Part shown: one piece after another, positions 14,251-62,917 of the stretch | Numbering within the stretch: the first letter of the stretch is position 1 | Layout of the letters: each line of letters starts with the position of its first letter | NCBI GenBank assembly: GCA_963995525.1 | Contig: OZ023207.1 | Span: 4,294,491-4,358,490 of the forward strand | Length of the DNA stretch: 64,000 bases | Source: Escarpia spicata | Lineage: Eukaryota > Annelida > Polychaeta > Sabellida > Siboglinidae | Direction: 5' to 3' | Translations under genes and position numbers: made by a program | Notes under the pieces: generated by a model | Databases searched by the model: none | The model's input: only the letters and a program-made list of their open reading frames with translations | What the model was told of the DNA's origin: nothing

Positions 14251-15420
14251 CACAGTTGTACGACTTCAGACATGGATGTACAAGACACAGTTGTACGATG
14301 TCGGACATGGATGCTCAAGACACAGTTGTACGATGTCGGACATGGATGTACAAGACACAGTAGTACGATGTCGGACATGGATGTACAAGGCACAGTTGTA
14401 CGATGTCGGACATGGATGTACACGACACAGTTGTACGACGTCGGACATGGATGGTCAAGACACAGTTGTACGACGTCAGACATGAATGCACAAGACACAG
14501 TTGTACGATGTCGGACATGGATGTAGAAGACACAGTTGTACGATGTCGGACATGGATGTAGAAGACACAGTTGTACGACGTCAGACATGGATGTACAAGA
14601 CACAGTTGTACGACGTCGGACATGGATGAAGAAGACACAGTTGTACGACGTCAGACATGGATGTACAAGACACAGTTGTACGATGTCGGACATGGATATA
14701 GAAGACACAGTTGTACGATGTCGGACATGGATTTAGAAGACATAGTTGTACGATGTCGGACCTGGATGTTCAAGACACAGTTGTAAGATGTCGGACATGG
14801 ATGTTCAAGACACAGTTGTACGATGTCGGACATGGATGTACAAGACACCGTTGTACGACGTCAAACATGGATGGTCAAGACACAGTTGTACGACGTCAGA
14901 CATGGATGCACAAGACACAGTTGTACGATGTCGGACATGGATGTACAAGACACAGTTGTACGATGTCAGACATGGATGTACAAGACACAGTTGTACGATG
15001 TCGGACATGGATGTAGAAGACACAGTTGTACGACGTCGGACATGGATGTACAAGACACAGTTGTACGACGTCGGACATGGATGAAGAAGACACAGTTGTA
15101 CGACGTCGGACATGGATGAAGAAGACACAGTTGTACGACGTCGGACATGGATGTACAAGACACAGTTGTACGACGTCGGACATGGATGTACAAGACACAG
15201 TTGTACGACGTCGGACATGGATGTAGAAGACACAGTTGTACGATTTCGGACATGGATGTAGAAGACACAATTGTACAGCGTCAGACATGGATGTACAAGA
15301 CACAGTTATACGATGTCGGACATGGATGTACAAGACACAGTTGTACGATTTCGGACATGGATGTAGAAGACACAATTGTACGACGTCAGACATGGATGTA
15401 CAAGACACAGTTGTACGATG

Positions 15421-18400
15421 TCGGACTTGGATTTAGAAGACATAGTTGTACGATGTCGGACCTGGATTTTCAAGACACAGTTGTAAGATGTCGAACATGG
15501 ATGTTCAAGTCACAGTTGTACGATGTCGGACATGGATGTACAAGACACCGTTGTACGACGTCAAACATGGATGGTCAAGACACAGTTGTACGACGTCAGA
15601 CATGGATGCACAAGTCACAGTTGTACGATGTCGGACATGGATGTAGAAGACACAGTTGTACGATGTCGGACATGGATGTACAAGACACAGTTGTACGATG
15701 TCGGACATGGATGTACAAGACACAGTTGTACGACGTCGGACATGGATGTACAAGACACAGTTGTACGACGTCGGACATGGATGTACAAGACACAGTTGTA
15801 CGACGTTGGACATGGATGTAGAAGACACAGTTGTACGACGTCGGACATGGATGTAGAAGACACAGTTGTACGATGTCGGACATGGATGTACAAGACACAG
15901 TTGTACGATGTCGGACATGGATATAGAAGACACAGTTGTACGACGTCGGACATGGATGTAGAAGACACAGTTGTACGATGTCGGACATGGATGTAGAAGA
16001 CACAGTTGTACGACGTCGGACATGGATGTAGAAGACACAGTTGTACGATGTCGGACATGGATGTACAAGACACAGTTGTACGATGTCGGACATGGATGTA
16101 GAAGACACAGTTGTACGATGTCGGACATGGATGTAGAAGACACAGTTGTACGATGTCGGACATGGATGTAGAAGACACAGTTGTACGACGTCGGACATGG
16201 ATGTAGAAGACACAGTTGTACGATGTCGGACATGGATGTAGAAGACACAGTTGTACGATGTCGGACATGGATGTACAAGACACAGTTGTACGATGTCGGA
16301 CATGGATGTACAAGACACAATTGTACGACGTCGGACATGGATGTACAAGACACAGTTGTACGACGTTGGACATGGATGTAGAAGACACAGTTGTACGACC
16401 TCGGACATGGATGTAGAAGACACAGTTGTATGATGTCGGATATGGATGTACAAGACACAGTTGTACGATGTCGGACATGGATGAACAAGACACAGTTGTA
16501 CGATGTCGGACATGGATATAGAAGACACAGTTGTACGACGTCGGACATGGATGTAGAAGACACAGTTGTACGATGTCGGACATGGATGTAGAAGACACAG
16601 TTGTACGATGTCGGACATGGATGTAGAAGACACGGTTGTACGATGTCGGATATGGATGTACAAGACACAGTTGTACGATGTCGGACATGGATGTAGAAGA
16701 CACAGTTGTACGATGTCGGACATGGATGTAGAAGACACAGTTGTACGATGTCGGACATGGATGTAGAAGACACAGTTGTACGACGTCGGACATGGATGTA
16801 GAAGACACAGTTGTACGATGTCGGACATGGATGTACAAGACACAGTTGTACGACGTCGGACATGGATGTAGAAGACACAGTTGTACGATGTCAGACATGG
16901 ATGCACAAGACACAGTTGTACGATGTCGCACATGGATGTACAAGACACAGTTGTACGATGTCGGACATGGATGTAGAAGACACAGTTGTACGATGTCGGA
17001 CATGGATGTAGAAGACACAGTTGTACGACGTCAGACATGGATGCACAAGACACAGTTGTACGATGTCGGACATGGATGTACAAGACACAGTTGTACGATG
17101 TCGGACATTGATGTAGAAGACACAGTTGTACGACGTCAGACATGGATGTAGAAGACACAGTTGTACGATGTCGGACATGGATGTACAAGACACAGTTGTA
17201 TGATGTCAGACATGGATGTAGAAGACACAGTTGTACGACGTCAGACATTGGTGTACAATACACAGTTGTTCGATATCGGACATGGATGTACAAGGCACAG
17301 TTGTACGACGTCAAACATGGATTGTCAAGACACAGTTGTACGATGTCGGACATGGATGCTCAAGACACAGTTGTACGATGTCGGACATGGATGTACAAGG
17401 CACAGTTGTACGATGTCGGACATGGATGTACACGACACAGTTGTACGACGTCGGACATGGATGGTCAAGACACAGTTGTACGACGTCAGACATGGATGCA
17501 CAAGACACAGTTGTACGATGTCGGACATGGATGTAGAAGACACAGTTGTACGATGTCGGACATGGATGTAGAAGACACAGTTGTACGACGTCAGACATGG
17601 ATGTACAAGACACAGTTGTACGACGTCGGACATGGATGAAGAAGACACAGTTGTACGACGTCAGACATGGATGTACAAGACACAGTTGTACGATGTCGGA
17701 CATGGATATAGAAGACACAGTTGTACGATGTCGGACATGGATTTAGAAGACATAGTTGTACGATGTCGGACCTGGATGTTCAAGACACAGTTGTAAGATG
17801 TCGGACATGGATGTTCAAGACACAGTTGTACGATGTCAGACATGGATGTACAAGACACAGTTGTACGACGTCAAACATGGATGGTCAAGACACCGTTGTA
17901 CGACGTCAGACATGGATGCACAAGACACAGTTGTACGATGTCGGACATGGATGTACAAGACACAGTTGTACGATGTCAGACATGGATGTACAAGACACAG
18001 TTGTACGATGTCGGACATGGATGTAGAAGACACAGTTGTACGACGTCGGACATGGATGTACAAGACACAGTTGTACGACGTCGGACATGGATGAAGAAGA
18101 CACAGTTGTACGACGTCGGACATGGATGAAGAAGACACAGTTGTACGACGTCGGACATGGATGTACAAGACACAGTTGTACGACGTCGGACATGGATGTA
18201 CAAGACACAGTTGTACGACGTCGGACATGGATGTAGAAGACACAGTTGTACGATTTCGGACATGGATGTAGAAGACACAATTGTACAGCGTCAGACATGG
18301 ATGTACAAGACACAGTTGTACGATGTCGGACATGGATGTACAAGACACAGTTGTACGATTTCGGACATGGATGTAGAAGACACAATTGTACGACGTCAGA

Positions 18401-21400
18401 CATGGATGTACAAGACACAGTTGTATGATGTCGGACTTGGATTTAGAATACATAGTTGTACGATGTCGGACCTGGATGTTCAAGACACAGTTGTAAGATG
18501 TCGAACATGGATGTTCAAGACACAGTTGTACGATGTCGGACATGGATGTACAAGACACCGTTGTACGACGTCAAACATGGATGGTCAAGACACAGTTGTA
18601 CGACGTCAGACATGGATGCACAAGTCACAGTTGTACGATGTCGGACATGGATGTAGAAGACACAGTTGTACGATGTCGGAAATGGATGTAGAAGACACAG
18701 TTGTACGATGTCGGACATGGATGTACAAGACACAGTTGTACGATGTCGGACATGGATGTACAAGACACAGTTGTACGACGTCGGACATGGATGTACAAGA
18801 CACAGTTGTACGACGTTGGACATGGATGTAGAAGACACAGTTGTACGACGTCGGACATGGATGTAGAAGACACAGTTGTACGATGTCGGACATGGATGTA
18901 CAAGACACAGTTGTACGATGTCGGACATGGATATAGAAGACACAGTTGTACGACGTCGGACATGGATGTAGAAGACACAGTTGTACGACGTCGGACATGG
19001 ATGTAGAAGACACAGTTGTACGACGTCGGACATGGATGTAGAAGACACAGTTGTACGATGTCGGACATGGATGTAGAAGACACAGTTGTACGATGTCGGA
19101 CATGGATGTACAAGACACAGTTGTACGATGTCGGACATGGATGTACAAGACACAGTTGTACGACGTCGGACATGGATGTACAAGACACAGTTGTACGACG
19201 TCGGACATGGATGTACAAGACACAGTTGTACGACGTTGGACATGGATGTAGAAGACACAGTTGTACGACGTCGGACATGGATGTAGAAGACACAGTTGTA
19301 TGATGTCGGACATGGATGTACAAGACACAGTTGTACGATGTCGGACATGGATGTACAAGACACAGTTGTACGATGTCGGACATGGATATAGAAGACACAG
19401 TTGTACGACGTCGGACATGGATGTAGAAGACACAGTTGTACGATGTCGGACATGGATGTAGAAGACACAGTTGTACGACGTCGGACATGGATGTAGAAGA
19501 CACGGTTGTACGATGTCGGACATGGATGTACAAGACACAGTTGTACGATGTCGGACATGGATGTAGAAGACACAGTTGTACGATGTCGGACATGGATGTA
19601 GAAGACACAGTTGTACGATGTCGGATATGGATGTAGAAGACACAGTTGTACGACGTCGGACATGGATGTAGAAGACACAGTTGTACGATGTCGGACATGG
19701 ATGTACAAGACACAGTTGTACGACGTCGGACATGGATGTAGAAGACACAGTTGTACGATGTCAGACATGGATGCACAAGACACAGTTGTACGATGTCGCA
19801 CATGGATGTACAAGACACAGTTGTACGATGTCGGACATGGATGTAGAAGACACAGTTGTACGATGTCGGACATGGATGTAGAAGACACAGTTGTACGACG
19901 TCAGACATGGATGCACAAGACACAGTTGTACGATGTCGGACATGGATGTACAAGACACAGTTGTACGATGTCGGACATTGATGTAGAAGACACAGTTGTA
20001 CGACGTCAGACATGGATGTAGAAGACACAGTTGTACGATGTCGGACATGGATGTACAAGACACAGTTGTATGATGTCAGACATGGATGTAGAAGACACAG
20101 TTGTACGACGTCAGACATTGGTGTACAAGACACAGTTGTTCGATATCGGACATGGATGTACAAGGCACAGTTGTACGACGTCAAACATGGATTGTCAAGA
20201 CACAGTTGTACGATGTCGGACATGGATGCTCAAGACACAGTTGTACGATGTCGGACATGGATGTACAAGGCACAGTTGTACGATGTCGGACATGGATGTA
20301 CACGACACAGTTGTACGACGTCGGACATGGATGGTCAAGACACAGTTGTACGACGTCAGACATGGATGCACAAGACACAGTTGTACGATGTCGGACATGG
20401 ATGTAGAAGACACAGTTGTACGATGTCGGACATGGATGTAGAAGACACAGTTGTACGACGTCAGACATGGATGTACAAGACACAGTTGTACGACGTCGGA
20501 CATGGATGAAGAAGACACAGTTGTACGACGTCAGACATGGATGTACAAGACACAGTAGTAAGATGTCGGACATGGATGTACAAGGCACAGTTGTACGATG
20601 TCGGACATGGATGTACACGACACAGTTGTACGACGTCGGACATGGATGTAGAAGACACAGTTGTACGACGTCAGACATGGATGTACAAGACACAGTTGTA
20701 CGACGTCGGACATGGATGAAGAAGACACAGTTGTACGACGTCAGACATGGATGTACAAGACACAGTTGTACGATGTCGGACATGGATATAGAAGACACAG
20801 TTGTACGATGTCGGACATGGATTTAGAAGACATAGTTGTACGATGTCGGACCTGGATGTTCAAGACACAGTTGTAAGATGTCGGACATGGATGTTCAAGA
20901 CACAGTTGTACGATGTCAGACATGGATGTACAAGACACAGTTGTACGACGTCAAACATGGATGGTCAAGACACCGTTGTACGACGTCAGACATGGATGCA
21001 CAAGACACAGTTGTACGATGTCGGACATGGATGTACAAGACACAGTTGTACGATGTCAGACATGGATGTACAAGACACAGTTGTACGATGTCGGACATGG
21101 ATGTAGAAGACACAGTTGTACGACGTCGGACATGGATGTACAAGACACAGTTGTACGACGTCGGACATGGATGAAGAAGACACAGTTGTACGACGTCGGA
21201 CATGGATGAAGAAGACACAGTTGTACGACGTCGGACATGGATGTACAAGACACAGTTGTACGACGTCGGACATGGATGTACAAGACACAGTTGTACGACG
21301 TCGGACATGGATGTAGAAGACACAGTTGTACGATTTCGGACATGGATGTAGAAGACACAATTGTACAGCGTCAGACATGGATGTACAAGACACAGTTGTA

Positions 21401-24400
21401 CGATGTCGGACATGGATGTACAAGACACAGTTGTACGATTTCGGACATGGATGTAGAAGACACAATTGTACGACGTCAGACATGGATGTACAAGACACAG
21501 TTGTATGATGTCGGACTTGGATTTAGAATACATAGTTGTACGATGTCGGACCTGGATGTTCAAGACACAGTTGTAAGATGTCGAACATGGATGTTCAAGA
21601 CACAGTTGTACGATGTCGGACATGGATGTACAAGACACCGTTGTACGACGTCAAACATGGATGGTCAAGACACAGTTGTACGACGTCAGACATGGATGCA
21701 CAAGTCACAGTTGTACGATGTCGGACATGGATGTAGAAGACACAGTTGTACGATGTCGGAAATGGATGTAGAAGACACAGTTGTACGATGTCGGACATGG
21801 ATGTACAAGACACAGTTGTACGATGTCGGACATGGATGTACAAGACACAGTTGTACGACGTCGGACATGGATGTACAAGACACAGTTGTACGACGTCGGA
21901 CATGGATGTACAAGACACAGTTGTACGACGTTGGACATGGATGTAGAAGACACAGTTGTACGACGTCGGACATGGATGTAGAAGACACAGTTGTACGATG
22001 TCGGACATGGATGTACAAGACACAGTTGTACGATGTCGGACATGGATATAGAAGACACAGTTGTACGACGTCGGACATGGATGTAGAAGACACAGTTGTA
22101 CGACGTCGGACATGGATGTAGAAGACACAGTTGTACGACGTCGGACATGGATGTAGAAGACACAGTTGTACGATGTCGGACATGGATGTAGAAGACACAG
22201 TTGTACGATGTCGGACATGGATGTACAAGACACAGTTGTACGATGTCGGACATGGATGTACAAGACACAGTTGTACGACGTCGGACATGGATGTACAAGA
22301 CACAGTTGTACGACGTCGGACATGGATGTACAAGACACAGTTGTACGACGTTGGACATGGATGTAGAAGACACAGTTGTACGACGTCGGACATGGATGTA
22401 GAAGACACAGTTGTATGATGTCGGACATGGATGTACAAGACACAGTTGTACGATGTCGGACATGGATGTACAAGACACAGTTGTACGATGTCGGACATGG
22501 ATATAGAAGACACAGTTGTACGACGTCGGACATGGATGTAGAAGACACAGTTGTACGATGTCGGACATGGATGTAGAAGACACAGTTGTACGACGTCGGA
22601 CATGGATGTAGAAGACACGGTTGTACGATGTCGGACATGGATGTACAAGACACAGTTGTACGATGTCGGACATGGATGTAGAAGACACAGTTGTACGATG
22701 TCGGACATGGATGTAGAAGACACAGTTGTACGATGTCGGATATGGATGTAGAAGACACAGTTGTACGACGTCGGACATGGATGTAGAAGACACAGTTGTA
22801 CGATGTCGGACATGGATGTACAAGACACAGTTGTACGACGTCGGACATGGATGTAGAAGACACAGTTGTACGATGTCAGACATGGATGCACAAGACACAG
22901 TTGTACGATGTCGCACATGGATGTACAAGACACAGTTGTACGATGTCGGACATGGATGTAGAAGACACAGTTGTACGATGTCGGACATGGATGTAGAAGA
23001 CACAGTTGTACGACGTCAGACATGGATGCACAAGACACAGTTGTACGATGTCGGACATGGATGTACAAGACACAGTTGTACGATGTCGGACATTGATGTA
23101 GAAGACACAGTTGTACGACGTCAGACATGGATGTAGAAGACACAGTTGTACGATGTCGGACATGGATGTACAAGACACAGTTGTATGATGTCAGACATGG
23201 ATGTAGAAGACACAGTTGTACGACGTCAGACATTGGTGTACAAGACACAGTTGTTCGATATCGGACATGGATGTACAAGGCACAGTTGTACGACGTCAAA
23301 CATGGATTGTCAAGACACAGTTGTACGATGTCGGACATGGATGCTCAAGACACAGTTGTACGATGTCGGACATGGATGTACAAGGCACAGTTGTACGATG
23401 TCGGACATGGATGTACACGACACAGTTGTACGACGTCGGACATGGATGGTCAAGACACAGTTGTACGACGTCAGACATGGATGCACAAGACACAGTTGTA
23501 CGATGTCGGACATGGATGTAGAAGACACAGTTGTACGATGTCGGACATGGATGTAGAAGACACAGTTGTACGACGTCAGACATGGATGTACAAGACACAG
23601 TTGTACGACGTCGGACATGGATGAAGAAGACACAGTTGTACGACGTCAGACATGGATGTACAAGACACAGTAGTAAGATGTCGGACATGGATGTACAAGG
23701 CACAGTTGTACGATGTCGGACATGGATGTACACGACACAGTTGTACGACGTCGGACATGGATGGTCAAGACACAGTTGTACGACGTCAGACATGGATGCA
23801 CAAGACACAGTTGTACGATGTCGGACATGGATGTAGAAGACACAGTTGTACGATGTCGGACATGGATGTAGAAAACACAGTTGTACGACGTCAGACATGG
23901 ATGTACAAGACACAGTTGTACGACGTCGGACATGGATGAAGAAGACACAGTTGTACGACGTCAGACATGGATGTACAAGACACAGTTGTACGATGTCGGA
24001 CATGGATATAGAAGACACAGTTGTACGATGTCGGACATGGATTTAGAAGACATAGTTGTACGATGTCGGACCTGGATGTTCAAGACACAGTTGTACGATG
24101 TCGGACATGGATGTTCAAGACACAGTTGTACGATGTCGGACATGGATGTTCAAGACACAGTTGTACGATGTCAGACATGGATGTACAAGACACAGTTGTA
24201 CGACGTCAAACATGGATGGTCAAGACACCGTTGTACGACGTCAGACATGGATGCACAAGACACAGTTGTACGATGTCGGACATGGATGTACAAGACACAG
24301 TTGTACGATGTCAGACATGGATGTACAAGACACAGTTGTACGATGTCGGACATGGATGTAGAAGACACAGTTGTACGACGTCGGACATGGATGTACAAGA

Positions 24401-27400
24401 CACAGTTGTACGACGTCGGACATGGATGAAGAAGACACAGTTGTACGACGTCGGACATGGATGAAGAAGACACAGTTGTACGACGTCGGACATGGATGTA
24501 CAAGACACAGTTGTACGACGTCGGACATGGATGTACAAGACACAGTTGTACGACGTCGGACATGGATGTAGAAGACACAGTTGTACGATTTCGGACATGG
24601 ATGTAGAAGACACAATTGTACAGCGTCAGACATGGATGTACAAGACACAGTTGTACGATGTCGGACATGGATGTACAAGACACAGTTGTACGATTTCGGA
24701 CATGGATGTAGAAGACACAATTGTACGACGTCAGACATGGATGTACAAGACACAGTTGTATGATGTCGGACTTGGATTTAGAATACATAGTTGTACGATG
24801 TCGGACCTGGATGTTCAAGACACAGTTGTAAGATGTCGAACATGGATGTTCAAGACACAGTTGTACGATGTCGGACATGGATGTACAAGACACCGTTGTA
24901 CGACGTCAAACATGGATGGTCAAGACACAGTTGTACGACGTCAGACATGGATGCACAAGTCACAGTTGTACGATGTCGGACATGGATGTAGAAGACACAG
25001 TTGTACGATGTCGGAAATGGATGTAGAAGACACAGTTGTACGATGTCGGACATGGATGTACAAGACACAGTTGTACGATGTCGGACATGGATGTACAAGA
25101 CACAGTTGTACGACGTCGGACATGGATGTACAAGACACAGTTGTACGACGTCGGACATGGATGTACAAGACACAGTTGTACGACGTTGGACATGGATGTA
25201 GAAGACACAGTTGTACGACGTCGGACATGGATGTAGAAGACACAGTTGTACGATGTCGGACATGGATGTACAAGACACAGTTGTACGATGTCGGACATGG
25301 ATATAGAAGACACAGTTGTACGACGTCGGACATGGATGTAGAAGACACAGTTGTACGACGTCGGACATGGATGTAGAAGACACAGTTTTTACGACGTCGG
25401 ACATGGATGTAGAAGACACAGTTGTACGATGTCGGACATGGATGTAGAAGACACAGTTGTACGATGTCGGACATGGATGTACAAGACACAGTTGTACGAT
25501 GTCGGACATGGATGTACAAGACACAATTGTACGACGTCGGACATGGATGTACAAGACACAGTTGTACGACGTCGGACATGGATGTACAAGACACAGTTGT
25601 ACGACGTTGGACATGGATGTAGAAGACACAGTTGTACGACCTCGGACATGGATGTAGAAGACACAGTTGTATGATGTCGGATATGGATGTACAAGACACA
25701 GTTGTACGATGTCGGACATGGATGAACAAGACACAGTTGTACGATGTCGGACATGGATATAGAAGACACAGTTGTACGACGTCGGACATGGATGTAGAAG
25801 ACACAGTTGTACGATGTCGGACATGGATGTAGAAGACACAGTTGTACGATGTCGGACATGGATGTAGAAGACACGGTTGTACGATGTCGGATATGGATGT
25901 ACAAGACACAGTTGTACGATGTCGGACATGGATGTAGAAGACACAGTTGTACGATGTCGGACATGGATGTAGAAGACACAGTTGTACGATGTCGGACATG
26001 GATGTAGAAGACACAGTTGTACGACGTCGGACATGGATGTAGAAGACACAGTTGTACGATGTCGGACATGGATGTACAAGACACAGTTGTACGACGTCGG
26101 ACATGGATGTAGAAGACACAGTTGTACGATGTCAGACATGGATGCACAAGACACAGTTGTACGATGTCGCACATGGATGTACAAGACACAGTTGTACGAT
26201 GTCGGACATGGATGTAGAAGACACAGTTGTACGATGTCGGACATGGATGTAGAAGACACAGTTGTACGACGTCAGACATGGATGCACAAGACACAGTTGT
26301 ACGATGTCGGACATGGATGTACAAGACACAGTTGTACGATGTCGGACATTGATGTAGAAGACACAGTTGTACGACGTCAGACATGGATGTAGAAGACACA
26401 GTTGTACGATGTCGGACATGGATGTACAAGACACAGTTGTATGATGTCAGACATGGATGTAGAAGACACAGTTGTACGACGTCAGACATTGGTGTACAAT
26501 ACACAGTTGTTCGATATCGGACATGGATGTACAAGGCACAGTTGTACGACGTCAAACATGGATTGTCAAGACACAGTTGTACGATGTCGGACATGGATGC
26601 TCAAGACACAGTTGTACGATGTCGGACATGGATGTAGAAGACACAGTTGTACGATGTCGGACATGGATGTAGAAGACACAGTTGTACGACGTCAGACATG
26701 GATGTACAAGACACAGTTGTACGACGTCGGACATGGATGAAGAAGACACAGTTGTACGACGTCAGACATGGATGTACAAGACACAGTTGTACGATGTCGG
26801 ACATGGATATAGAAGACACAGTTGTACGATGTCGGACATGGATTTAGAAGACATAGTTGTACGATGTCGGACCTGGATGTTCAAGACACAGTTGTAAGAT
26901 GTCGGACATGGATGTTCAAGACACAGTTGTACGATGTCAGACATGGATGTACAAGACACAGTTGTACGACGTCAAACATGGATGGTCAAGACACCGTTGT
27001 ACGACGTCAGACATGGATGCACAAGACACAGTTGTACGATGTCGGACATGGATGTACAAGACACAGTTGTACGATGTCAGACATGGATGTACAAGACACA
27101 GTTGTACGTTGTCGGACATGGATGTAGAAGACACAGTTGTACGACGTCGGACATGGATGTACAAGACACAGTTGTACGACGTCGGACATGGATGAAGAAG
27201 ACACAGTTGTACGACGTCGGACATGGATGAAGAAGACACAGTTGTACGACGTCGGACATGGATGTACAAGACACAGTTGTACGACGTCGGACATGGATGT
27301 ACAAGACACAGTTGTACGACGTCGGACATGGATGTAGAAGACACAGTTGTACGATTTCGGACATGGATGTAGAAGACACAATTGTACAGCGTCAGACATG

Positions 27401-30400: not shown

Positions 30401-33400
30401 GTCGGACATGGATGTACAAGACACAGTTGTACGACGTCGGACATGGATGAAGAAGACACAGTTGTACGACGTCGGACATGGATGAAGAAGACACAGTTGT
30501 ACGACGTCGGACATGGATGTACAAGACACAGTTGTACGACGTCGGACATGGATGTACAAGACACAGTTGTACGACGTCGGACATGGATGTAGAAGACACA
30601 GTTGTACGATTTCGGACATGGATGTAGAAGACACAATTGTACAGCGTCAGACATGGATGTACAAGACACAGTTGTACGATGTCGGACATGGATGTACAAG
30701 ACACAGTTGTACGATTTCGGACATGGATGTAGAAGACACAATTGTACGACGTCAGACATGGATGTACAAGACACAGTTGTATGATGTCGGACTTGGATTT
30801 AGAATACATAGTTGTACGATGTCGGACCTGGATGTTCAAGACACAGTTGTAAGATGTCGAACATGGATGTTCAAGACACAGTTGTACGATGTCGGACATG
30901 GATGTACAAGACACCGTTGTACGACGTCAAACATGGATGGTCAAGACACAGTTGTACGACGTCAGACATGGATGCACAAGTCACAGTTGTACGATGTCGG
31001 ACATGGATGTAGAAGACACAGTTGTACGATGTCGGAAATGGATGTAGAAGACACAGTTGTACGATGTCGGACATGGATGTACAAGACACAGTTGTACGAT
31101 GTCGGACATGGATGTACAAGACACAGTTGTACGACGTCGGACATGGATGTACAAGACACAGTTGTACGACGTCGGACATGGATGTACAAGACACAGTTGT
31201 ACGACGTTGGACATGGATGTAGAAGACACAGTTGTACGACGTCGGACATGGATGTAGAAGACACAGTTGTACGATGTCGGACATGGATGTACAAGACACA
31301 GTTGTACGATGTCGGACATGGATATAGAAGACACAGTTGTACGACGTCGGACATGGATGTAGAAGACACAGTTGTACGACGTCGGACATGGATGTAGAAG
31401 ACACAGTTGTACGACGTCGGACATGGATGTAGAAGACACAGTTGTACGATGTCGGACATGGATGTAGAAGACACAGTTGTACGATGTCGGACATGGATGT
31501 ACAAGACACAGTTGTACGATGTCGGACATGGATGTACAAGACACAATTGTACGACGTCGGACATGGATGTACAAGACACAGTTGTACGACGTCGGACATG
31601 GATGTACAAGACACAGTTGTACGACGTTGGACATGGATGTAGAAGACACAGTTGTACGACGTCGGACATGGATGTAGAAGACACAGTTGTATGATGTCGG
31701 ACATGGATGTACAAGACACAGTTGTACGATGTCGGACATGGATGTACAAGACACAGTTGTACGATGTCGGACATGGATATAGAAGACACAGTTGTACGAC
31801 GTCGGACATGGATGTAGAAGACACAGTTGTACGATGTCGGACATGGATGTAGAAGACACAGTTGTACGACGTCGGACATGGATGTAGAAGACACGGTTGT
31901 ACGATGTCGGACATGGATGTACAAGACACAGTTGTACGATGTCGGACATGGATGTAGAAGACACAGTTGTACGATGTCGGACATGGATGTAGAAGACACA
32001 GTTGTACGATGTCGGATATGGATGTAGAAGACACAGTTGTACGACGTCGGACATGGATGTAGAAGACACAGTTGTACGATGTCGGACATGGATGTACAAG
32101 ACACAGTTGTACGACGTCGGACATGGATGTAGAAGACACAGTTGTACGATGTCAGACATGGATGCACAAGACACAGTTGTACGATGTCGGACATGGATGT
32201 ACAAGACACAGTTGTACGACGTCGGACATGGATGTAGAAGACACAGTTGTACGATGTCAGACATGGATGCACAAGACACAGTTGTACGATGTCGGACATG
32301 GATGTACAAGACACAGTTGTACGACGTCGGACATGGATGTAGAAGACACAGTTGTACGATTTCGGACATGGATGTAGAAGACACAATTGTACAGCGTCAG
32401 ACATGGATGTACAAGACACAGTTGTACGATGTCGGACATGGATGTACAAGACACAGTTGTACGATTTCGGACATGGATGTAGAAGACACAATTGTACGAC
32501 GTCAGACATGGATGTACAAGACACAGTTGTATGATGTCGGACTTGGATTTAGAATACATAGTTGTACGATGTCGGACCTGGATGTTCAAGACACAGTTGT
32601 AAGATGTCGAACATGGATGTTCAAGACACAGTTGTACGATGTCGGACATGGATGTACAAGACACCGTTGTACGACGTCAAACATGGATGGTCAAGACACA
32701 GTTGTACGACGTCAGACATGGATGCACAAGTCACAGTTGTACGATGTCGGACATGGATGTAGAAGACACAGTTGTACGATGTCGGAAATGGATGTAGAAG
32801 ACACAGTTGTACGATGTCGGACATGGATGTACAAGACACAGTTGTACGATGTCGGACATGGATGTACAAGACACAGTTGTACGACGTCGGACATGGATGT
32901 ACAAGACACAGTTGTACGACGTCGGACATGGATGTACAAGACACAGTTGTACGACGTTGGACATGGATGTAGAAGACACAGTTGTACGACGTCGGACATG
33001 GATGTAGAAGACACAGTTGTACGATGTCGGACATGGATGTACAAGACACAGTTGTACGATGTCGGACATGGATATAGAAGACACAGTTGTACGACGTCGG
33101 ACATGGATGTAGAAGACACAGTTGTACGACGTCGGACATGGATGTAGAAGACACAGTTGTACGACGTCGGACATGGATGTAGAAGACACAGTTGTACGAT
33201 GTCGGACATGGATGTAGAAGACACAGTTGTACGATGTCGGACATGGATGTACAAGACACAGTTGTACGATGTCGGACATGGATGTACAAGACACAGTTGT
33301 ACGACGTCGGACATGGATGTACAAGACACAGTTGTACGACGTCGGACATGGATGTACAAGACACAGTTGTACGACGTTGGACATGGATGTAGAAGACACA

Positions 33401-36400
33401 GTTGTACGACGTCGGACATGGATGTAGAAGACACAGTTGTATGATGTCGGACATGGATGTACAAGACACAGTTGTACGATGTCGGACATGGATGTACAAG
33501 ACACAGTTGTACGATGTCGGACATGGATATAGAAGACACAGTTGTACGACGTCGGACATGGATGTAGAAGACACAGTTGTACGATGTCGGACATGGATGT
33601 AGAAGACACAGTTGTACGACGTCGGACATGGATGTAGAAGACACGGTTGTACGATGTCGGACATGGATGTACAAGACACAGTTGTACGATGTCGGACATG
33701 GATGTAGAAGACACAGTTGTACGATGTCGGACATGGATGTAGAAGACACAGTTGTACGATGTCGGATATGGATGTAGAAGACACAGTTGTACGACGTCGG
33801 ACATGGATGTAGAAGACACAGTTGTACGATGTCGGACATGGATGTACAAGACACAGTTGTACGACGTCGGACATGGATGTAGAAGACACAGTTGTACGAT
33901 GTCAGACATGGATGCACAAGACACAGTTGTACGATGTCGCACATGGATGTACAAGACACAGTTGTACGATGTCGGACATGGATGTAGAAGACACAGTTGT
34001 ACGATGTCGGACATGGATGTAGAAGACACAGTTGTACGACGTCAGACATGGATGCACAAGACACAGTTGTACGATGTCGGACATGGATGTACAAGACACA
34101 GTTGTACGATGTCGGACATTGATGTAGAAGACACAGTTGTACGACGTCAGACATGGATGTAGAAGACACAGTTGTACGATGTCGGACATGGATGTACAAG
34201 ACACAGTTGTATGATGTCAGACATGGATGTAGAAGACACAGTTGTACGACGTCAGACATTGGTGTACAAGACACAGTTGTTCGATATCGGACATGGATGT
34301 ACAAGGCACAGTTGTACGACGTCAAACATGGATTGTCAAGACACAGTTGTACGATGTCGGACATGGATGCTCAAGACACAATTGTACGATGTCGGACATG
34401 GATGTACAAGGCACAGTTGTACGATGTCGGACATGGATGTACACGACACAGTTGTACGACGTCGGACATGGATGGTCAAGACACAGTTGTACGACGTCAG
34501 ACATGGATGCACAAGACACAGTTGTACGATGTCGGACATGGATGTAGAAGACACAGTTGTACGATGTCGGACATGGATGTAGAAGACACAGTTGTACGAC
34601 GTCAGACATGGATGTACAAGACACAGTTGTACGACGTCGGACATGGATGAAGAAGACACAGTTGTACGACGTCAGACATGGATGTACAAGACACAGTAGT
34701 AAGATGTCGGACATGGATGTACAAGGCACAGTTGTACGATGTCGGACATGGATGTACACGACACAGTTGTACGACGTCGGACATGGATGGTCAAGACACA
34801 GTTGTACGACGTCAGACATGGATGCACAAGACACAGTTGTACGATGTCGGACATGGATGTAGAAGACACAGTTGTACGATGTCGGACATGGATGTAGAAA
34901 ACACAGTTGTACGACGTCAGACATGGATGTACAAGACACAGTTGTACGACGTCGGACATGGATGAAGAAGACACAGTTGTACGACGTCAGACATGGATGT
35001 ACAAGACACAGTTGTACGATGTCGGACATGGATATAGAAGACACAGTTGTACGATGTCGGACATGGATTTAGAAGACATAGTTGTACGATGTCGGACCTG
35101 GATGTTCAAGACACAGTTGTACGATGTCGGACATGGATGTTCAAGACACAGTTGTACGATGTCGGACATGGATGTTCAAGACACAGTTGTACGATGTCAG
35201 ACATGGATGTACAAGACACAGTTGTACGACGTCAAACATGGATGGTCAAGACACCGTTGTACGACGTCAGACATGGATGCACAAGACACAGTTGTACGAT
35301 GTCGGACATGGATGTACAAGACACAGTTGTACGATGTCAGACATGGATGTACAAGACACAGTTGTACGATGTCGGACATGGATGTAGAAGACACAGTTGT
35401 ACGACGTCGGACATGGATGTACAAGACACAGTTGTACGACGTCGGACATGGATGAAGAAGACACAGTTGTACGACGTCGGACATGGATGAAGAAGACACA
35501 GTTGTACGACGTCGGACATGGATGTACAAGACACAGTTGTACGACGTCGGACATGGATGTACAAGACACAGTTGTACGACGTCGGACATGGATGTAGAAG
35601 ACACAGTTGTACGATTTCGGACATGGATGTAGAAGACACAATTGTACAGCGTCAGACATGGATGTACAAGACACAGTTGTACGATGTCGGACATGGATGT
35701 ACAAGACACAGTTGTACGATTTCGGACATGGATGTAGAAGACACAATTGTACGACGTCAGACATGGATGTACAAGACACAGTTGTATGATGTCGGACTTG
35801 GATTTAGAATACATAGTTGTACGATGTCGGACCTGGATGTTCAAGACACAGTTGTAAGATGTCGAACATGGATGTTCAAGACACAGTTGTACGATGTCGG
35901 ACATGGATGTACAAGACACCGTTGTACGACGTCAAACATGGATGGTCAAGACACAGTTGTACGACGTCAGACATGGATGCACAAGTCACAGTTGTACGAT
36001 GTCGGACATGGATGTAGAAGACACAGTTGTACGATGTCGGAAATGGATGTAGAAGACACAGTTGTACGATGTCGGACATGGATGTACAAGACACAGTTGT
36101 ACGATGTCGGACATGGATGTACAAGACACAGTTGTACGACGTCGGACATGGATGTACAAGACACAGTTGTACGACGTCGGACATGGATGTACAAGACACA
36201 GTTGTACGACGTTGGACATGGATGTAGAAGACACAGTTGTACGACGTCGGACATGGATGTAGAAGACACAGTTGTACGATGTCGGACATGGATGTACAAG
36301 ACACAGTTGTACGATGTCGGACATGGATATAGAAGACACAGTTGTACGACGTCGGACATGGATGTAGAAGACACAGTTGTACGACGTCGGACATGGATGT

Positions 36401-39400
36401 AGAAGACACAGTTGTACGACGTCGGACATGGATGTAGAAGACACAGTTGTACGATGTCGGACATGGATGTAGAAGACACAGTTGTACGATGTCGGACATG
36501 GATGTACAAGACACAGTTGTACGATGTCGGACATGGATGTACAAGACACAATTGTACGACGTCGGACATGGATGTACAAGACACAGTTGTACGACGTCGG
36601 ACATGGATGTACAAGACACAGTTGTACGACGTTGGACATGGATGTAGAAGACACAGTTGTACGACGTCGGACATGGATGTAGAAGACACAGTTGTATGAT
36701 GTCGGACATGGATGTACAAGACACAGTTGTACGATGTCGGACATGGATGTACAAGACACAGTTGTACGATGTCGGACATGGATATAGAAGACACAGTTGT
36801 ACGACGTCGGACATGGATGTAGAAGACACAGTTGTACGATGTCGGACATGGATGTAGAAGACACAGTTGTACGACGTCGGACATGGATGTAGAAGACACG
36901 GTTGTACGATGTCGGACATGGATGTACAAGACACAGTTGTACGATGTCGGACATGGATGTAGAAGACACAGTTGTACGATGTCGGACATGGATGTAGAAG
37001 ACACAGTTGTACGATGTCGGATATGGATGTAGAAGACACAGTTGTACGACGTCGGACATGGATGTAGAAGACACAGTTGTACGATGTCGGACATGGATGT
37101 ACAAGACACAGTTGTACGACGTCGGACATGGATGTAGAAGACACAGTTGTACGATGTCAGACATGGATGCACAAGACACAGTTGTACGATGTCGGACATG
37201 GATGTACAAGACACAGTTGTACGATGTCGGACATGGATGTAGAAGACACAGTTGTACGATGTCGGACATGGATGTAGAAGACACAGTTGTACGACGTCAG
37301 ACATGGATGCACAAGACACAGTTGTACGATGTCGGACATGGATGTACAAGACACAGTTGTACGATGTCGGACATTGATGTAGAAGACACAGTTGTACGAC
37401 GTCAGACATGGATGTAGAAGACACAGTTGTACGATGTCGGACATTGATGTAGAAGACACAGTTGTACGACGTCAGACATGGATGTACAAGACACAGTTGT
37501 ATAATGTCAGACATGGATGTAGAAGACACAGTTGTACGACGTCAGACATTGGTGTACAAGACACAGTTGTTCGATATCGGACATGAATGTAGAAGACACA
37601 GTTGTACGACGTCGGACATGGATGTAGAAGACACAGTTGTACGATTTCGGACATGGATGTAGAAGACACAATTGTACGACGTCAGACATGGATGTACAAG
37701 ACACAGTTGTACGATGTCGGACATGGATGTACAAGACACAGTTGTACGATGTCGGACATGGATTTAGAAGACATAGTTGTACGATGTCGGACATGGATGT
37801 TCAAGACACAGTTGTAAGATGTCGGACATGGATGTTCAAGACACAGTTGTACGATGTCGGACATGGATGTTCAAGACACAGTTGTAAGATGTTGGACATG
37901 GATGTTCAAGACACAGTTGTAAGATGTTGGACATGTATGTAGAAGACACAGTTGTACGATGTCGGACATGGATGTAGAAGACACAGTTGTACGATGTCGG
38001 ACATGGATGTAGAAGACACAGTTGTACGATGTCGGACATGGATGTAGAAGACACAGTTGTACGACGTCGGACATGGATGTAGAAGACACAGTTGTACGAT
38101 GTCGGACATGGATGTACAAGACACAGTTGTACGACGTCGGACATGGATGTAGAAGACACAGTTGTACGATGTCAGACATGGATGCACAAGACACAGTTGT
38201 ACGATGTCGCACATGGATGTACAAGACACAGTTGTACGATGTCGTACATGGATGTAGAAGACACAGTTGTACGATGTCGGACATGGATGTAGAAGACACA
38301 GTTGTACGACGTCAGACATGGATGCACAAGACACAGTTGTACGATGTCGGACATGGATGTACAAGACACAGTTGTACGATGTCGGACATTGATGTAGAAG
38401 ACACAGTTGTACGACGTCAGACATGGATGTAGAAGACACAGTTGTACGATGTCGGACATGGATGTACAAGACACAGTTGTATGATGTCAGACATGGATGT
38501 AGAAGACACAGTTGTACGACGTCAGACATTGGTGTACAATACACAGTTGTTCGATATCGGACATGGATGTACAAGGCACAGTTGTACGACGTCAAACATG
38601 GATTGTCAAGACACAGTTGTACGATGTCGGACATGGATGCTCAAGACACAGTTGTACGATGTCGGACATGGATGTACAAGGCACAGTTGTACGATGTCGG
38701 ACATGGATGTACACGACACAGTTGTACGACGTCGGACATGGATGGTCAAGACACAGTTGTACGACGTCAGACATGGATGCACAAGACACAGTTGTACGAT
38801 GTCGGACATGGATGTAGAAGACACAGTTGTACGATGTCGGACATGGATGTAGAAGACACAGTTGTACGACGTCAGACATGGATGTACAAGACACAGTTGT
38901 ACGACGTCGGACATGGATGAAGAAGACACAGTTGTACGACGTCAGACATGGATGTACAAGACACAGTTGTACGATGTCGGACATGGATATAGAAGACACA
39001 GTTGTACGATGTCGGACATGGATTTAGAAGACATAGTTGTACGATGTCGGACCTGGATGTTCAAGACACAGTTGTAAGATGTCGGACATGGATGTTCAAG
39101 ACACAGTTGTACGATGTCAGACATGGATGTACAAGACACAGTTGTACGACGTCAAACATGGATGGTCAAGACACCGTTGTACGACGTCAGACATGGATGC
39201 ACAAGACACAGTTGTACGATGTCGGACATGGATGTACAAGACACAGTTGTACGATGTCAGACATGGATGTACAAGACACAGTTGTACGTTGTCGGACATG
39301 GATGTAGAAGACACAGTTGTACGACGTCGGACATGGATGTACAAGACACAGTTGTACGACGTCGGACATGGATGAAGAAGACACAGTTGTACGACGTCGG

Positions 39401-42400
39401 ACATGGATGAAGAAGACACAGTTGTACGACGTCGGACATGGATGTACAAGACACAGTTGTACGACGTCGGACATGGATGTACAAGACACAGTTGTACGAC
39501 GTCGGACATGGATGTAGAAGACACAGTTGTACGATTTCGGACATGGATGTAGAAGACACAATTGTACAGCGTCAGACATGGATGTACAAGACACAGTTGT
39601 ACGATGTCGGACATGGATGTACAAGACACAGTTGTACGATTTCGGACATGGATGTAGAAGACACAATTGTACGACGTCAGACATGGATGTACAAGACACA
39701 GTTGTATGATGTCGGACTTGGATTTAGAATACATAGTTGTACGATGTCGGACCTGGATGTTCAAGACACAGTTGTAAGATGTCGAACATGGATGTTCAAG
39801 ACACAGTTGTACGATGTCGGACATGGATGTACAAGACACCGTTGTACGACGTCAAACATGGATGGTCAAGACACAGTTGTACGACGTCAGACATGGATGC
39901 ACAAGTCACAGTTGTACGATGTCGGACATGGATGTAGAAGACACAGTTGTACGATGTCGGAAATGGATGTAGAAGACACAGTTGTACGATGTCGGACATG
40001 GATGTACAAGACACAGTTGTACGATGTCGGACATGGATGTACAAGACACAGTTGTACGACGTCGGACATGGATGTACAAGACACAGTTGTACGACGTCGG
40101 ACATGGATGTACAAGACACAGTTGTACGACGTTGGACATGGATGTAGAAGACACAGTTGTACGACGTCGGACATGGATGTAGAAGACACAGTTGTACGAT
40201 GTCGGACATGGATGTACAAGACACAGTTGTACGATGTCGGACATGGATATAGAAGACACAGTTGTACGACGTCGGACATGGATGTAGAAGACACAGTTGT
40301 ACGACGTCGGACATGGATGTAGAAGACACAGTTGTACGACGTCGGACATGGATGTAGAAGACACAGTTGTACGATGTCGGACATGGATGTAGAAGACACA
40401 GTTGTACGATGTCGGACATGGATGTACAAGACACAGTTGTACGATGTCGGACATGGATGTACAAGACACAGTTGTACGACGTCGGACATGGATGTACAAG
40501 ACACAGTTGTACGACGTCGGACATGGATGTACAAGACACAGTTGTACGACGTTGGACATGGATGTAGAAGACACAGTTGTACGACGTCGGACATGGATGT
40601 AGAAGACACAGTTGTATGATGTCGGACATGGATGTACAAGACACAGTTGTACGATGTCGGACATGGATGTACAAGACACAGTTGTACGATGTCGGACATG
40701 GATATAGAAGACACAGTTGTACGACGTCGGACATGGATGTAGAAGACACAGTTGTACGATGTCGGACATGGATGTAGAAGACACAGTTGTACGACGTCGG
40801 ACATGGATGTAGAAGACACGGTTGTACGATGTCGGACATGGATGTACAAGACACAGTTGTACGATGTCGGACATGGATGTAGAAGACACAGTTGTACGAT
40901 GTCGGACATGGATGTAGAAGACACAGTTGTACGATGTCGGATATGGATGTAGAAGACACAGTTGTACGACGTCGGACATGGATGTAGAAGACACAGTTGT
41001 ACGATGTCGGACATGGATGTACAAGACACAGTTGTACGACGTCGGACATGGATGTAGAAGACACAGTTGTACGATGTCAGACATGGATGCACAAGACACA
41101 GTTGTACGATGTCGCACATGGATGTACAAGACACAGTTGTACGATGTCGGACATGGATGTAGAAGACACAGTTGTACGATGTCGGACATGGATGTAGAAG
41201 ACACAGTTGTACGACGTCAGACATGGATGCACAAGACACAGTTGTACGATGTCGGACATGGATGTACAAGACACAGTTGTACGATGTCGGACATTGATGT
41301 AGAAGACACAGTTGTACGACGTCAGACATGGATGTAGAAGACACAGTTGTACGATGTCGGACATGGATGTACAAGACACAGTTGTATGATGTCAGACATG
41401 GATGTAGAAGACACAGTTGTACGACGTCAGACATTGGTGTACAAGACACAGTTGTTCGATATCGGACATGGATGTACAAGGCACAGTTGTACGACGTCAA
41501 ACATGGATTGTCAAGACACAGTTGTACGATGTCGGACATGGATGCTCAAGACACAGTTGTACGATGTCGGACATGGATGTACAAGGCACAGTTGTACGAT
41601 GTCGGACATGGATGTACACGACACAGTTGTACGACGTCGGACATGGATGGTCAAGACACAGTTGTACGACGTCAGACATGGATGCACAAGACACAGTTGT
41701 ACGATGTCGGACATGGATGTAGAAGACACAGTTGTACGATGTCGGACATGGATGTAGAAGACACAGTTGTACGACGTCAGACATGGATGTACAAGACACA
41801 GTTGTACGACGTCGGACATGGATGAAGAAGACACAGTTGTACGACGTCAGACATGGATGTACAAGACACAGTAGTAAGATGTCGGACATGGATGTACAAG
41901 GCACAGTTGTACGATGTCGGACATGGATGTACACGACACAGTTGTACGACGTCGGACATGGATGGTCAAGACACAGTTGTACGACGTCAGACATGGATGC
42001 ACAAGACACAGTTGTACGATGTCGGACATGGATGTAGAAGACACAGTTGTACGATGTCGGACATGGATGTAGAAAACACAGTTGTACGACGTCAGACATG
42101 GATGTACAAGACACAGTTGTACGACGTCGGACATGGATGAAGAAGACACAGTTGTACGACGTCAGACATGGATGTACAAGACACAGTTGTACGATGTCGG
42201 ACATGGATATAGAAGACACAGTTGTACGATGTCGGACATGGATTTAGAAGACATAGTTGTACGATGTCGGACCTGGATGTTCAAGACACAGTTGTACGAT
42301 GTCGGACATGGATGTTCAAGACACAGTTGTACGATGTCGGACATGGATGTTCAAGACACAGTTGTACGATGTCAGACATGGATGTACAAGACACAGTTGT

Positions 42401-42967
42401 ACGACGTCAAACATGGATGGTCAAGACACCGTTGTACGACGTCAGACATGGATGCACAAGACACAGTTGTACGATGTCGGACATGGATGTACAAGACACA
42501 GTTGTACGATGTCAGACATGGATGTACAAGACACAGTTGTACGATGTCGGACATGGATGTAGAAGACACAGTTGTACGACGTCGGACATGGATGTACAAG
42601 ACACAGTTGTACGACGTCGGACATGGATGAAGAAGACACAGTTGTACGACGTCGGACATGGATGAAGAAGACACAGTTGTACGACGTCGGACATGGATGT
42701 ACAAGACACAGTTGTACGACGTCGGACATGGATGTACAAGACACAGTTGTACGACGTCGGACATGGATGTAGAAGACACAGTTGTACGATTTCGGACATG
42801 GATGTAGAAGACACAATTGTACAGCGTCAGACATGGATGTACAAGACACAGTTGTACGATGTCGGACATGGATGTACAAGACACAGTTGTACGATTTCGG
42901 ACATGGATGTAGAAGACACAATTGTACGACGTCAGACATGGATGTACAAGACACAGTTGTATGATGT
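15421..42967. repeat. Higher-order repeat blocks of the satellite
   Basis: A rare unit, 'tcggacttggattta', marks equivalent positions at 15,421, 18,431, 21,511, 24,766, 27,532, 30,787, 32,537, 35,792, 39,712 and 42,967. The spacings are 3,010, 3,080, 3,255, 2,766, 3,255, 1,750, 3,255, 3,920 and 3,255 bp, or 86, 88, 93, 79 (plus 1 base), 93, 50, 93, 112 and 93 units. The unit order between marks is the same apart from block losses or gains, so a 93-unit, 3,255-bp higher-order repeat is the dominant form. Confidence 0.92.
25352..25420. repeat. Satellite unit with a one-base insertion
   Basis: At about 25,385-25,391 the usual 'cacagttgtacgac' reads 'cacagtttttacgac', one base longer. It shifts the register of all later units relative to earlier ones and is absent from the other higher-order copies. 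Confidence 0.9.
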
Positions 42968-45174
42968 CGGACTTGGATTTAGAATACATAGTTGTACGAT
43001 GTCGGACCTGGATGTTCAAGACACAGTTGTAAGATGTCGAACATGGATGTTCAAGACACAGTTGTACGATGTCGGACATGGATGTACAAGACACCGTTGT
43101 ACGACGTCAAACATGGATGGTCAAGACACAGTTGTACGACGTCAGACATGGATGCACAAGTCACAGTTGTACGATGTCGGACATGGATGTAGAAGACACA
43201 GTTGTACGATGTCGGAAATGGATGTAGAAGACACAGTTGTACGATGTCGGACATGGATGTACAAGACACAGTTGTACGATGTCGGACATGGATGTACAAG
43301 ACACAGTTGTACGACGTCGGACATGGATGTACAAGACACAGTTGTACGACGTCGGACATGGATGTACAAGACACAGTTGTACGACGTTGGACATGGATGT
43401 AGAAGACACAGTTGTACGACGTCGGACATGGATGTAGAAGACACAGTTGTACGATGTCGGACATGGATGTACAAGACACAGTTGTACGATGTCGGACATG
43501 GATATAGAAGACACAGTTGTACGACGTCGGACATGGATGTAGAAGACACAGTTGTACGACGTCGGACATGGATGTAGAAGACACAGTTGTACGACGTCGG
43601 ACATGGATGTAGAAGACACAGTTGTACGATGTCGGACATGGATGTAGAAGACACAGTTGTACGATGTCGGACATGGATGTACAAGACACAGTTGTACGAT
43701 GTCGGACATGGATGTACAAGACACAATTGTACGACGTCGGACATGGATGTACAAGACACAGTTGTACGACGTCGGACATGGATGTACAAGACACAGTTGT
43801 ACGACGTTGGACATGGATGTAGAAGACACAGTTGTACGACGTCGGACATGGATGTAGAAGACACAGTTGTATGATGTCGGACATGGATGTACAAGACACA
43901 GTTGTACGATGTCGGACATGGATGTACAAGACACAGTTGTACGATGTCGGACATGGATATAGAAGACACAGTTGTACGACGTCGGACATGGATGTAGAAG
44001 ACACAGTTGTACGATGTCGGACATGGATGTAGAAGACACAGTTGTACGACGTCGGACATGGATGTAGAAGACACGGTTGTACGATGTCGGACATGGATGT
44101 ACAAGACACAGTTGTACGATGTCGGACATGGATGTAGAAGACACAGTTGTACGATGTCGGACATGGATGTAGAAGACACAGTTGTACGATGTCGGATATG
44201 GATGTAGAAGACACAGTTGTACGACGTCGGACATGGATGTAGAAGACACAGTTGTACGATGTCGGACATGGATGTACAAGACACAGTTGTACGACGTCGG
44301 ACATGGATGTAGAAGACACAGTTGTACGATGTCAGACATGGATGCACAAGACACAGTTGTACGATGTCGGACATGGATGTACAAGACACAGTTGTACGAT
44401 GTCGGACATGGATGTAGAAGACACAGTTGTACGATGTCGGACATGGATGTAGAAGACACAGTTGTACGACGTCAGACATGGATGCACAAGACACAGTTGT
44501 ACGATGTCGGACATGGATGTACAAGACACAGTTGTACGATGTCGGACATTGATGTAGAAGACACAGTTGTACGACGTCAGACATGGATGTAGAAGACACA
44601 GTTGTACGATGTCGGACATTGATGTAGAAGACACAGTTGTACGACGTCAGACATGGATGTACAAGACACAGTTGTATAATGTCAGACATGGATGTAGAAG
44701 ACACAGTTGTACGACGTCAGACATTGGTGTACAAGACACAGTTGTTCGATATCGGACATGAATGTAGAAGACACAGTTGTACGACGTCGGACATGGATGT
44801 AGAAGACACAGTTGTACGATTTCGGACATGGATGTAGAAGACACAATTGTACGACGTCAGACATGGATGTACAAGACACAGTTGTACGATGTCGGACATG
44901 GATGTACAAGACACAGTTGTACGATGTCGGACATGGATTTAGAAGACATAGTTGTACGATGTCGGACATGGATGTTCAAGACACAGTTGTAAGATGTCGG
45001 ACATGGATGTTCAAGACACAGTTGTACGATGTCGGACATGGATGTTCAAGACACAGTTGTAAGATGTTGGACATGGATGTTCAAGACACAGTTGTAAGAT
45101 GTTGGACATGTATGTAGAAGACACAGTTGTACGATGTCGGACATGGATGTTCAAGACACAGTTGTAAGATGTTG

Positions 45175-45258
45175 GACATCCGTGTGTCCAACGTCGTACA
45201 ACTGTGTCTTCTACATCCATGTCCGAAATCGTACAACTGTGTCTTCTACATCCATGGC
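45175..45258 (-). repeat. Inverted satellite units near the right edge
   Basis: From about 45,180 to 45,255 the unit runs backwards: 'acgtcgtacaactgtgtctt', then 'ctacatccatgtccgaaatc', then 'ctacatccatg'. At 45,256 it flips back through 'catccatg-g-catggatg', giving a palindrome whose arms stay matched for roughly 25-30 bases with only a one-base spacer, and match more loosely beyond. About two units are inverted. Everywhere else the array is head-to-tail. Confidence 0.9.
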
Positions 45259-62721: not shown

Positions 62722-62917
62722 AGGATCCCAATGACAATCGCTCTCGCACACTCCAAACGGAACACTCTAGTAACCTATTCTGTCACATCGCGTGACAAAA
62801 AAGAGGCATCTAGTGAACTGATGTATATTTATATAAAGAAAATGTGTGTCAACAGTGATTGGGCAATTCAGGTGTGTTCCTGTGAAGCAGGTAGTAATTC
62901 ATTGTAGCTTTCTTGGA

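What the first reader, a model, noticed from the sequence alone, without database searches (positions are those of the whole stretch)
15421..45120. Nested higher-order structure: 35 bp, 3,255 bp, then 5,005/7,175/12,180 bp
Rare marker units recur with spacings that are exact multiples of 35. The 3,255-bp (93-unit) block dominates. On top of it, private variants are shared at fixed larger offsets: acacaattgt at 29,371 and 34,376 (5,005); acacaattgtacgacgtc at 31,541, 36,546 and 43,721 (5,005 and 7,175); gttgtacgttgtc at 27,101 and 39,281 (12,180, which is 5,005 + 7,175); gtgtacaata at 17,251, 26,492 and 38,532 (9,241 and 12,040). This is a readable history of successive multi-kilobase duplications inside a satellite with an unusually long higher-order unit.
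Basis: seen in the sequence. Interest (0 to 1): 0.75.

Follow-up and report, generated by a model that had tools for sequence, protein, structure and literature searches.

The report
Satellite array with readable duplication history
A 33-kb stretch of a 35-base repeat, probably in a marine animal, grew by a few large in-step duplications whose order can still be read; it is a clear example of how satellite DNA is already known to grow.

Summary
The pattern is real, but "nested periods" is the wrong name for it. Window 12,996-45,638 is a 35-bp satellite of 934 units, 926 of them exactly 35 bp, with an irregular 93-unit (3,255-bp) higher-order repeat. Offsets of 143, 205 and 348 units (5,005, 7,175 and 12,180 bp) carry exact runs of 115, 102 and 80 units; the median longest run over 699 offsets is 2, and 200 shuffles of unit order never exceeded 6.

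They are not a third level of periodicity. One segment exists in three copies, so 5,005 + 7,175 = 12,180 is arithmetic. Best reading: an earlier ~7.2-kb tandem duplication, which also copied an edge-proximal block (37,436-37,975), then a ~5-kb tandem duplication inside its left copy. Geometry, replay of both events and the one informative SNP agree.

The likely mechanism is in-register unequal exchange, textbook satellite growth; comparable higher-order repeats of short monomers are described in human arrays. The host is unidentified, no reads were available, and assembly error is not excluded. New member of a known kind; modest interest.

The parts
12996..45638 (+). 35-bp satellite array, 934 units (926 exactly 35 bp)
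12996..14369 (+). left edge: divergent units, mostly not matching the 93-unit repeat; 3 of 39 full units are not 35 bp
14370..20634 (+). older higher-order blocks of about 3.0-3.3 kb with in-register jumps
25360..25395 (+). 36-bp unit with a 1-bp insertion, at the junction (25,388-25,390) of two array lineages
26602..26636 (+). site where the left copy lacks 4 units (140 bp) present in the right copy and at 17,396-17,535; 35-bp overlap of the two diagonals
26602..32219 (+). copy c1 (12,180 to c3; 5,005 to c2 from 27,286 on)
32186..32290 (+). junction zone of the ~5-kb duplication, with a 3-unit (105-bp) local repeat
32291..37975 (+). copy c2 (7,175 to c3)
37436..37975 (+). internal copy of an edge-proximal block: identical to 44,611-45,150 over 540 bp and at most 92.8% identical (ungapped) to other places in the array
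37943..37975 (+). junction of the ~7.2-kb duplication; these 33 bp fit both parents
38782..45150 (+). copy c3, the uninterrupted copy of the segment
45185..45256 (-). short inverted stretch of satellite (72 bp, 3 mismatches to a common unit variant) near the right edge
45151..45638 (+). right edge: irregular units, no long copy elsewhere in the array

Best explanation
The region is a young, probably non-coding 35-bp satellite array of an animal, probably a marine invertebrate. It grew mainly by a handful of large tandem duplications that kept the 35-bp register, as expected of unequal exchange between misaligned repeat units. Shown from sequence: blocks of about 3.0-3.3 kb match each other at 99.2-100% and form an irregular 93-unit higher-order repeat; four near-identical copies of one larger segment exist, and c1/c2 are adjacent tandem copies. 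Best-supported order, an inference from parsimony: a ~7.2-kb (205-unit) tandem duplication that copied an edge-proximal block into the interior; a loss of 4 units in its left copy; a ~5-kb (143-unit, including a 3-unit local repeat at the junction) tandem duplication inside the left copy. Inferred only: the molecular route of exchange, neutrality, and that the assembly is right. Not resolved: the order of the 3-kb block steps and of the step whose junction is at 25,388-25,390.
For: The five longest near-exact diagonals are four or five kilobases or more at 99.94-99.98% identity. c3 is continuous where c1 holds only its left and c2 only its right part. Replaying the events leaves 2 and 6 mismatches. 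The only SNP that splits all four copies two against two pairs c1 with c2. In the core 878 of 879 units are exactly 35 bp. Parents share 33 and 35 bp at two junctions, and the third lies in a local 105-bp repeat. Unique unit types concentrate at the edges: 45%, 9% and 15% in the first, second and last 1.5-kb bins, 0-2% elsewhere. The longest exact repeat is 122 units, against at most 6 in 200 unit shuffles and at most 25 in 200 first-order Markov strings.
Against: No reads and no second individual were available, so a mis-assembled junction is possible. Only one SNP is informative for the c1/c2 grouping. The replay of the 5-kb event is imperfect in its last 71 bp, and in the 7.2-kb replay the 140 bp put back come from the right copy and match by construction. 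The ~9-kb step is ambiguous: the two sides align over 7,126 bp with 14 mismatches and four unit-sized indels, then diverge. Gene conversion could imitate part of the pattern.
Confidence: 0.85

Rival explanations
1. The long identical copies are assembly artefacts (mis-joined or duplicated contig paths, or a switch between haplotypes).
For: Copies of 5-6 kb at 99.9% identity are a known hard case for assemblers; no reads could be checked here.
Against: The copies are not identical: three SNPs, a 4-unit difference, a 1-bp insertion and a local 3-unit repeat separate them, and these fit one order.
Confidence: 0.12
2. The order was the reverse: the ~5-kb duplication came first, then a larger duplication copied both c1 and c2, and the right copy later lost about 5 kb.
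For: It yields the same set of offsets.
Against: It needs one more event, an exact loss, and a reversal or conversion at 41,556, where c3 has G like c0 while c1 and c2 have A.
Confidence: 0.08
3. A truly nested higher-order repeat with fixed periods of 5,005, 7,175 and 12,180 bp.
For: The offsets are among the four strongest by longest run.
Against: Each offset is carried by one pair of copies; they are additive by arithmetic; block spacings run from 1,750 to 3,920 bp and the parse shows jumps, not a longer period.
Confidence: 0.03
4. The array is a repetitive protein gene, since very long open frames run through it.
For: Many open frames of 150-591 aa in the array.
Against: 35 is not a multiple of 3, so every frame meets the same stop-poor unit, and open frames overlap each other on both strands. 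A 422-aa frame had 11 candidates and none at E <= 0.001 (a search tool may discard repetitive queries).
Confidence: 0.02

Closest known systems
Human GAATG (HSat3/DYZ1-type) arrays with 3,360- and 3,600-bp higher-order repeats (PMC2588610, section 6 read; DYZ1 3.6-kb unit, PMC4022460 passages)
   Same: Short monomer, higher-order unit of about 3.3-3.6 kb made of very many monomers
   Different: 5-bp monomer and a more regular period across 60-100 kb there; 35 bp and irregular blocks in 33 kb here; unrelated sequence as far as tested
61-bp VNTR at human Xp22.33 (PMC2588610, section 6 read)
   Same: 18-kb array with irregular, complex higher-order repeats of 1.6 and 2.5 kb
   Different: Other monomer; no event order is given in the section read
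Layered alpha-satellite array of human chromosome 8 (PMC8099727, passages)
   Same: Near-identical young core, divergent older edges
   Different: Megabase centromere there; 33 kb with no evidence of centromere function here
hsat4, a human 35-bp satellite (PMC2588610, passages)
   Same: Monomer length of 35 bp; one array of about 25 kb
   Different: Sequence not compared here; the shared length is taken as coincidence

Membership tests
Satellite / large minisatellite array | Head-to-tail tandem units over kilobases | tested here: met
   934 units over 32,643 bp; one short inverted stretch at 45,185-45,256
Satellite with higher-order repeat | Distant units more alike than neighbours at a multi-unit offset | tested here: met
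   At 93 units 251 of 841 units are identical (z 7.4 among 699 offsets), and longer blocks match at 99.2-100%; but neighbouring units are still alike (92.0% at offset 35) and block spacing is irregular
Satellite with higher-order repeat | Regular period of the higher-order unit | tested here: not met
   4 of 9 block spacings are 3,255 bp, the rest 1,750-3,920 bp (positions)
Nested (three-level) higher-order repeat | A further period above the higher-order unit that recurs | tested here: not met
   5,005 and 7,175 bp are single copy distances and 12,180 is their sum
Array grown by unequal exchange (Smith model, recalled) | In-register breakpoints, young core, divergent edges | tested here: met
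   878 of 879 core units are 35 bp; unique unit types at the edges; shared sequence at junctions
Centromeric or heterochromatic satellite | Chromosomal location and genome-wide abundance | not testable with these tools
   The search of the window's own genome did not complete
Protein-coding repeat gene | Unit length a multiple of 3 and homologous proteins | tested here: not met
   Unit of 35 bp; no homologue at E <= 0.001 among 11 candidates

The most novel reading that the evidence does not exclude
This locus grows by rare leaps of about 140-205 units, perhaps up to about 264, rather than unit by unit, and keeps a copy of its own edge-proximal block inside. It would then be a natural recorder in which size, place and order of single exchange events can be read, possibly at a locus that is still expanding.
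Probability: 0.3. Interest if true: 0.45.

Novelty: new member of a known kind. Interest (0 to 1): 0.28.

Why it matters
The order of single duplications in a satellite is usually blurred by later exchange. Here two large events, one small loss and an internalised edge-proximal block can be read from one sequence with very few mutations since. The locus is therefore a compact test case for models of satellite growth and for tools that infer duplication histories. It does not change what is known about how satellites grow.

Tried and rejected
A three-level nested period was rejected. The coding reading was rejected. A second 35-bp-period array lies at 12,049-12,426; a search with the satellite unit found nothing outside the array, so the equal period is taken as coincidence. 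Four of the other tandem arrays were checked for long internal copies: the longest exact runs are 136 bp (39-bp array), 214 bp (42-bp), 374 bp (75-bp) and 101 bp (84-bp), nothing comparable.

Relatives of the satellite were sought and not found: exact patterns gave 0 matches in viral contigs and prokaryote genome contigs, and six stretches of the unit gave 0 papers in the text search. The DNA collections are not animal genomes, so this says little. A frame of the 42-bp array had no homologue at E <= 0.001 among the 7,999 candidates scored. No claim about print is made beyond. Papers: PMC2588610 passages and its section 6; PMC4022460, PMC8099727 and PMC9859433 passages; the others only as search listings. 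None was read whole.

A random-duplication simulation timed out with no output. Its rates are arbitrary, so it shows only that such patterns arise easily. The observed count of additive triples (4) is above its mean (1.69).

A CpG-decay reading of the commonest unit variants (T or C at unit position 35, A or G at position 4) was considered and not tested further; strong non-CpG variants exist too (position 17 C or G), so nothing is claimed.

Full report
WHAT IS THERE. Window 12,996-45,638 is one satellite array. A cyclic alignment to the 35-bp consensus gives 934 units, 926 of them exactly 35 bp; there are 91 distinct unit strings, partial ones included, 84 among the 926. Identity at offset 35 is 92.0%. 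Around it lies repeat-rich DNA of animal type. At 1-846 is the end of a reverse-transcriptase-like frame with a weak GIY-YIG match, both below Pfam's cut-offs. I read it as a Penelope-like element (family name recalled). Among the 120 of 1,024 homologues listed, the named ones are from Amphiura, Branchiostoma, Ylistrum, Ptychodera and Lineus. The closest ones (up to 94% identity) carry no name. So the host is an animal, probably a marine invertebrate, not identified.

THE OBSERVATION. Three of the four markers are not private: they occur 30, 18 and 3 times. The offsets themselves are real. Among near-exact ungapped diagonals the five highest-scoring are offsets 7,175 (5,685 bp, 1 mismatch), 12,180 (5,618 bp, 2), 5,005 (4,934 bp, 1), 18,201 (4,753 bp, 1) and 6,021 (4,753 bp, 3). 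In unit strings the longest exact repeat is 122 units; 200 shuffles of unit order gave at most 6, and 200 first-order Markov strings at most 25. Over 699 offsets the median longest run is 2 and the 95th percentile 13. 143, 205 and 348 units have 115, 102 and 80; 93 units has 35, but the most identical units in total (251 of 841). The offset of 344 units (12,040 bp) is unremarkable by these numbers (longest run 11).

HIGHER-ORDER STRUCTURE. On a 93-unit reference taken from 39,046-42,300, the stretch 14,370-44,610 parses into a few long in-register runs with jumps. What does not fit is one unit at 25,360, 15 units from 37,436, and most of the array before 14,370 and after 44,610. Block spacing, read from a recurrent marker, is 3,010, 3,080, 3,255, 2,766, 3,255, 1,750, 3,255, 3,920 and 3,255 bp, so 93 units is the commonest block (4 of 9) but no strict period (positions).

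WHY 5,005, 7,175 AND 12,180 ARE NOT A THIRD LEVEL. One segment is present four times, whole or in part: c0 20,635-25,387, c1 26,602-32,219, c2 32,291-37,975 and c3 38,782-45,150. c1 to c2 is 5,005 and c2 to c3 is 7,175, hence c1 to c3 is 12,180. c0 is one base out of phase because of an insertion in the unit at 25,360 (offsets 6,021, 11,026 and 18,201).

THE HISTORY. c3 is continuous; c1 carries only its left and c2 only its right part. The simplest account is a two-copy state at offset 7,175 first, and a ~5-kb tandem duplication inside the left copy second. I tested it by undoing and replaying the events in a script. The 5,005-bp replay gives the 32,643-bp array with six mismatches: one SNP and five within 32,220-32,290, where a 3-unit repeat of 105 bp lies. 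After four units were put back into the left copy (taken from the right copy, hence matching by construction), the 7,175-bp replay gives two mismatches in 27,778 bp. Its junction is at 37,943-37,975, where 33 bp fit both parents.

Three sites vary among the copies. 41,556 has A in c1 and c2 and G in c3 and c0; this is the one site that is informative among all four. 39,289 has T in c1 and c3 and A in c0, and c2 does not reach it. 40,306 is private to c1. They do not conflict, but the grouping of c1 with c2 rests on one SNP besides the geometry.

The 540 bp at 37,436-37,975 are identical to 44,611-45,150 near the right end of the array, and at most 92.8% identical (ungapped) to other places in the array. 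I read the inner copy as an edge-proximal block carried inside by the first event.

Older steps are less clear. Blocks at offsets of 3.0-3.3 kb match at 99.2-100%. A junction at 25,388-25,390 joins two lineages. Aligning its two sides gives 7,126 bp with 14 mismatches and four unit-sized indels before they diverge. I claim no order for these.

MECHANISM. Breakpoints keep the 35-bp phase: 878 of 879 core units are 35 bp. At two breakpoints the parents share 33 and 35 bp; the third lies in a local 105-bp repeat with a 193-bp exact run. The edges hold most unique unit types: 45% of units in the first 1.5-kb bin, 9% in the second, 15% in the last, 0-2% elsewhere. Units of other lengths are commoner at the left edge (3 of 39) than in the core (1 of 879). 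This is what unequal exchange between misaligned repeats predicts (Smith 1976, recalled; seen here only as an entry in reference lists). Whether exchange was meiotic, between sister chromatids or replication-based cannot be told. A simulation of random in-register duplications and deletions, with arbitrary rates, reached the observed longest run in 75 of 100 trials and gave at least one additive triple among the six strongest offsets in 94 of 100. So nothing beyond random large duplications is required.

AGAINST AND UNTESTED. There were no reads, no second individual, and no answer from the search of the window's own genome (eight tries). A mis-assembled junction is therefore possible. Against it stand the SNPs, the four-unit difference and the inner edge-proximal block, which fit one order. 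The unit was not found in viral or prokaryote collections or in paper text, which says little about an animal satellite.

KNOWN KINDS. Multi-kilobase higher-order repeats built from short monomers are described: GAATG arrays with 3,360- and 3,600-bp units, HSATII with ~5.8 kb, and an 18-kb array of a 61-bp VNTR with irregular 1.6- and 2.5-kb units (PMC2588610, section 6 read). A young core with divergent edges is described for alpha satellite (PMC8099727, passages). This locus is a new and unusually legible member of that kind. Its interest is legibility, not a new principle.

Noticed in passing
window 12832-12990: A SINE-like element with tRNA-like boxes (my reading; ARAGORN found no tRNA in the window) abuts the left end of the satellite; a copy 77.6% identical lies at 2194-2345.
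   Followed up: partly
window 46003-46974, 50241-52490, 54510-57220, 2791-3299, 62909-63185: The window is crowded with other tandem arrays: units of 39, 42, 75, 84 and 66 bp. The 42-bp and 75-bp arrays stay open in frame (393 and 909 aa); the Pfam matches of these two frames have no single stretch that passes.
   Followed up: partly
window 1-846 (+): End of a reverse-transcriptase-like frame with a weak GIY-YIG match, probably a Penelope-like element, with relatives in several marine invertebrates and lancelets.
   Followed up: partly
window 5206-5799 (-) and 61089-61585 (-): Broken reverse-transcriptase-like frames, probably non-LTR elements. The part tested of the first (5452-5799) has an RVT_1 match below the cut-off, the part tested of the second (61298-61585) none; the two regions are 62% identical over 292 columns of DNA alignment.
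   Followed up: partly
window 985-1191 and 62043-62249: A 207-bp piece, 96% identical, in opposite orientation near the two ends of the window, probably a dispersed repeat.
   Followed up: no
window 45185-45256: A 72-bp inverted stretch of satellite just right of the end of the duplicated segment, directly followed by a return to the + orientation; it could be a fold-back template switch.
   Followed up: partly
window 13104, 13493, 14127: Units of 39, 39 and 33 bp in the left edge, the first two with the same 4-bp duplication, so the edge collects small indels that the core lacks.
   Followed up: no
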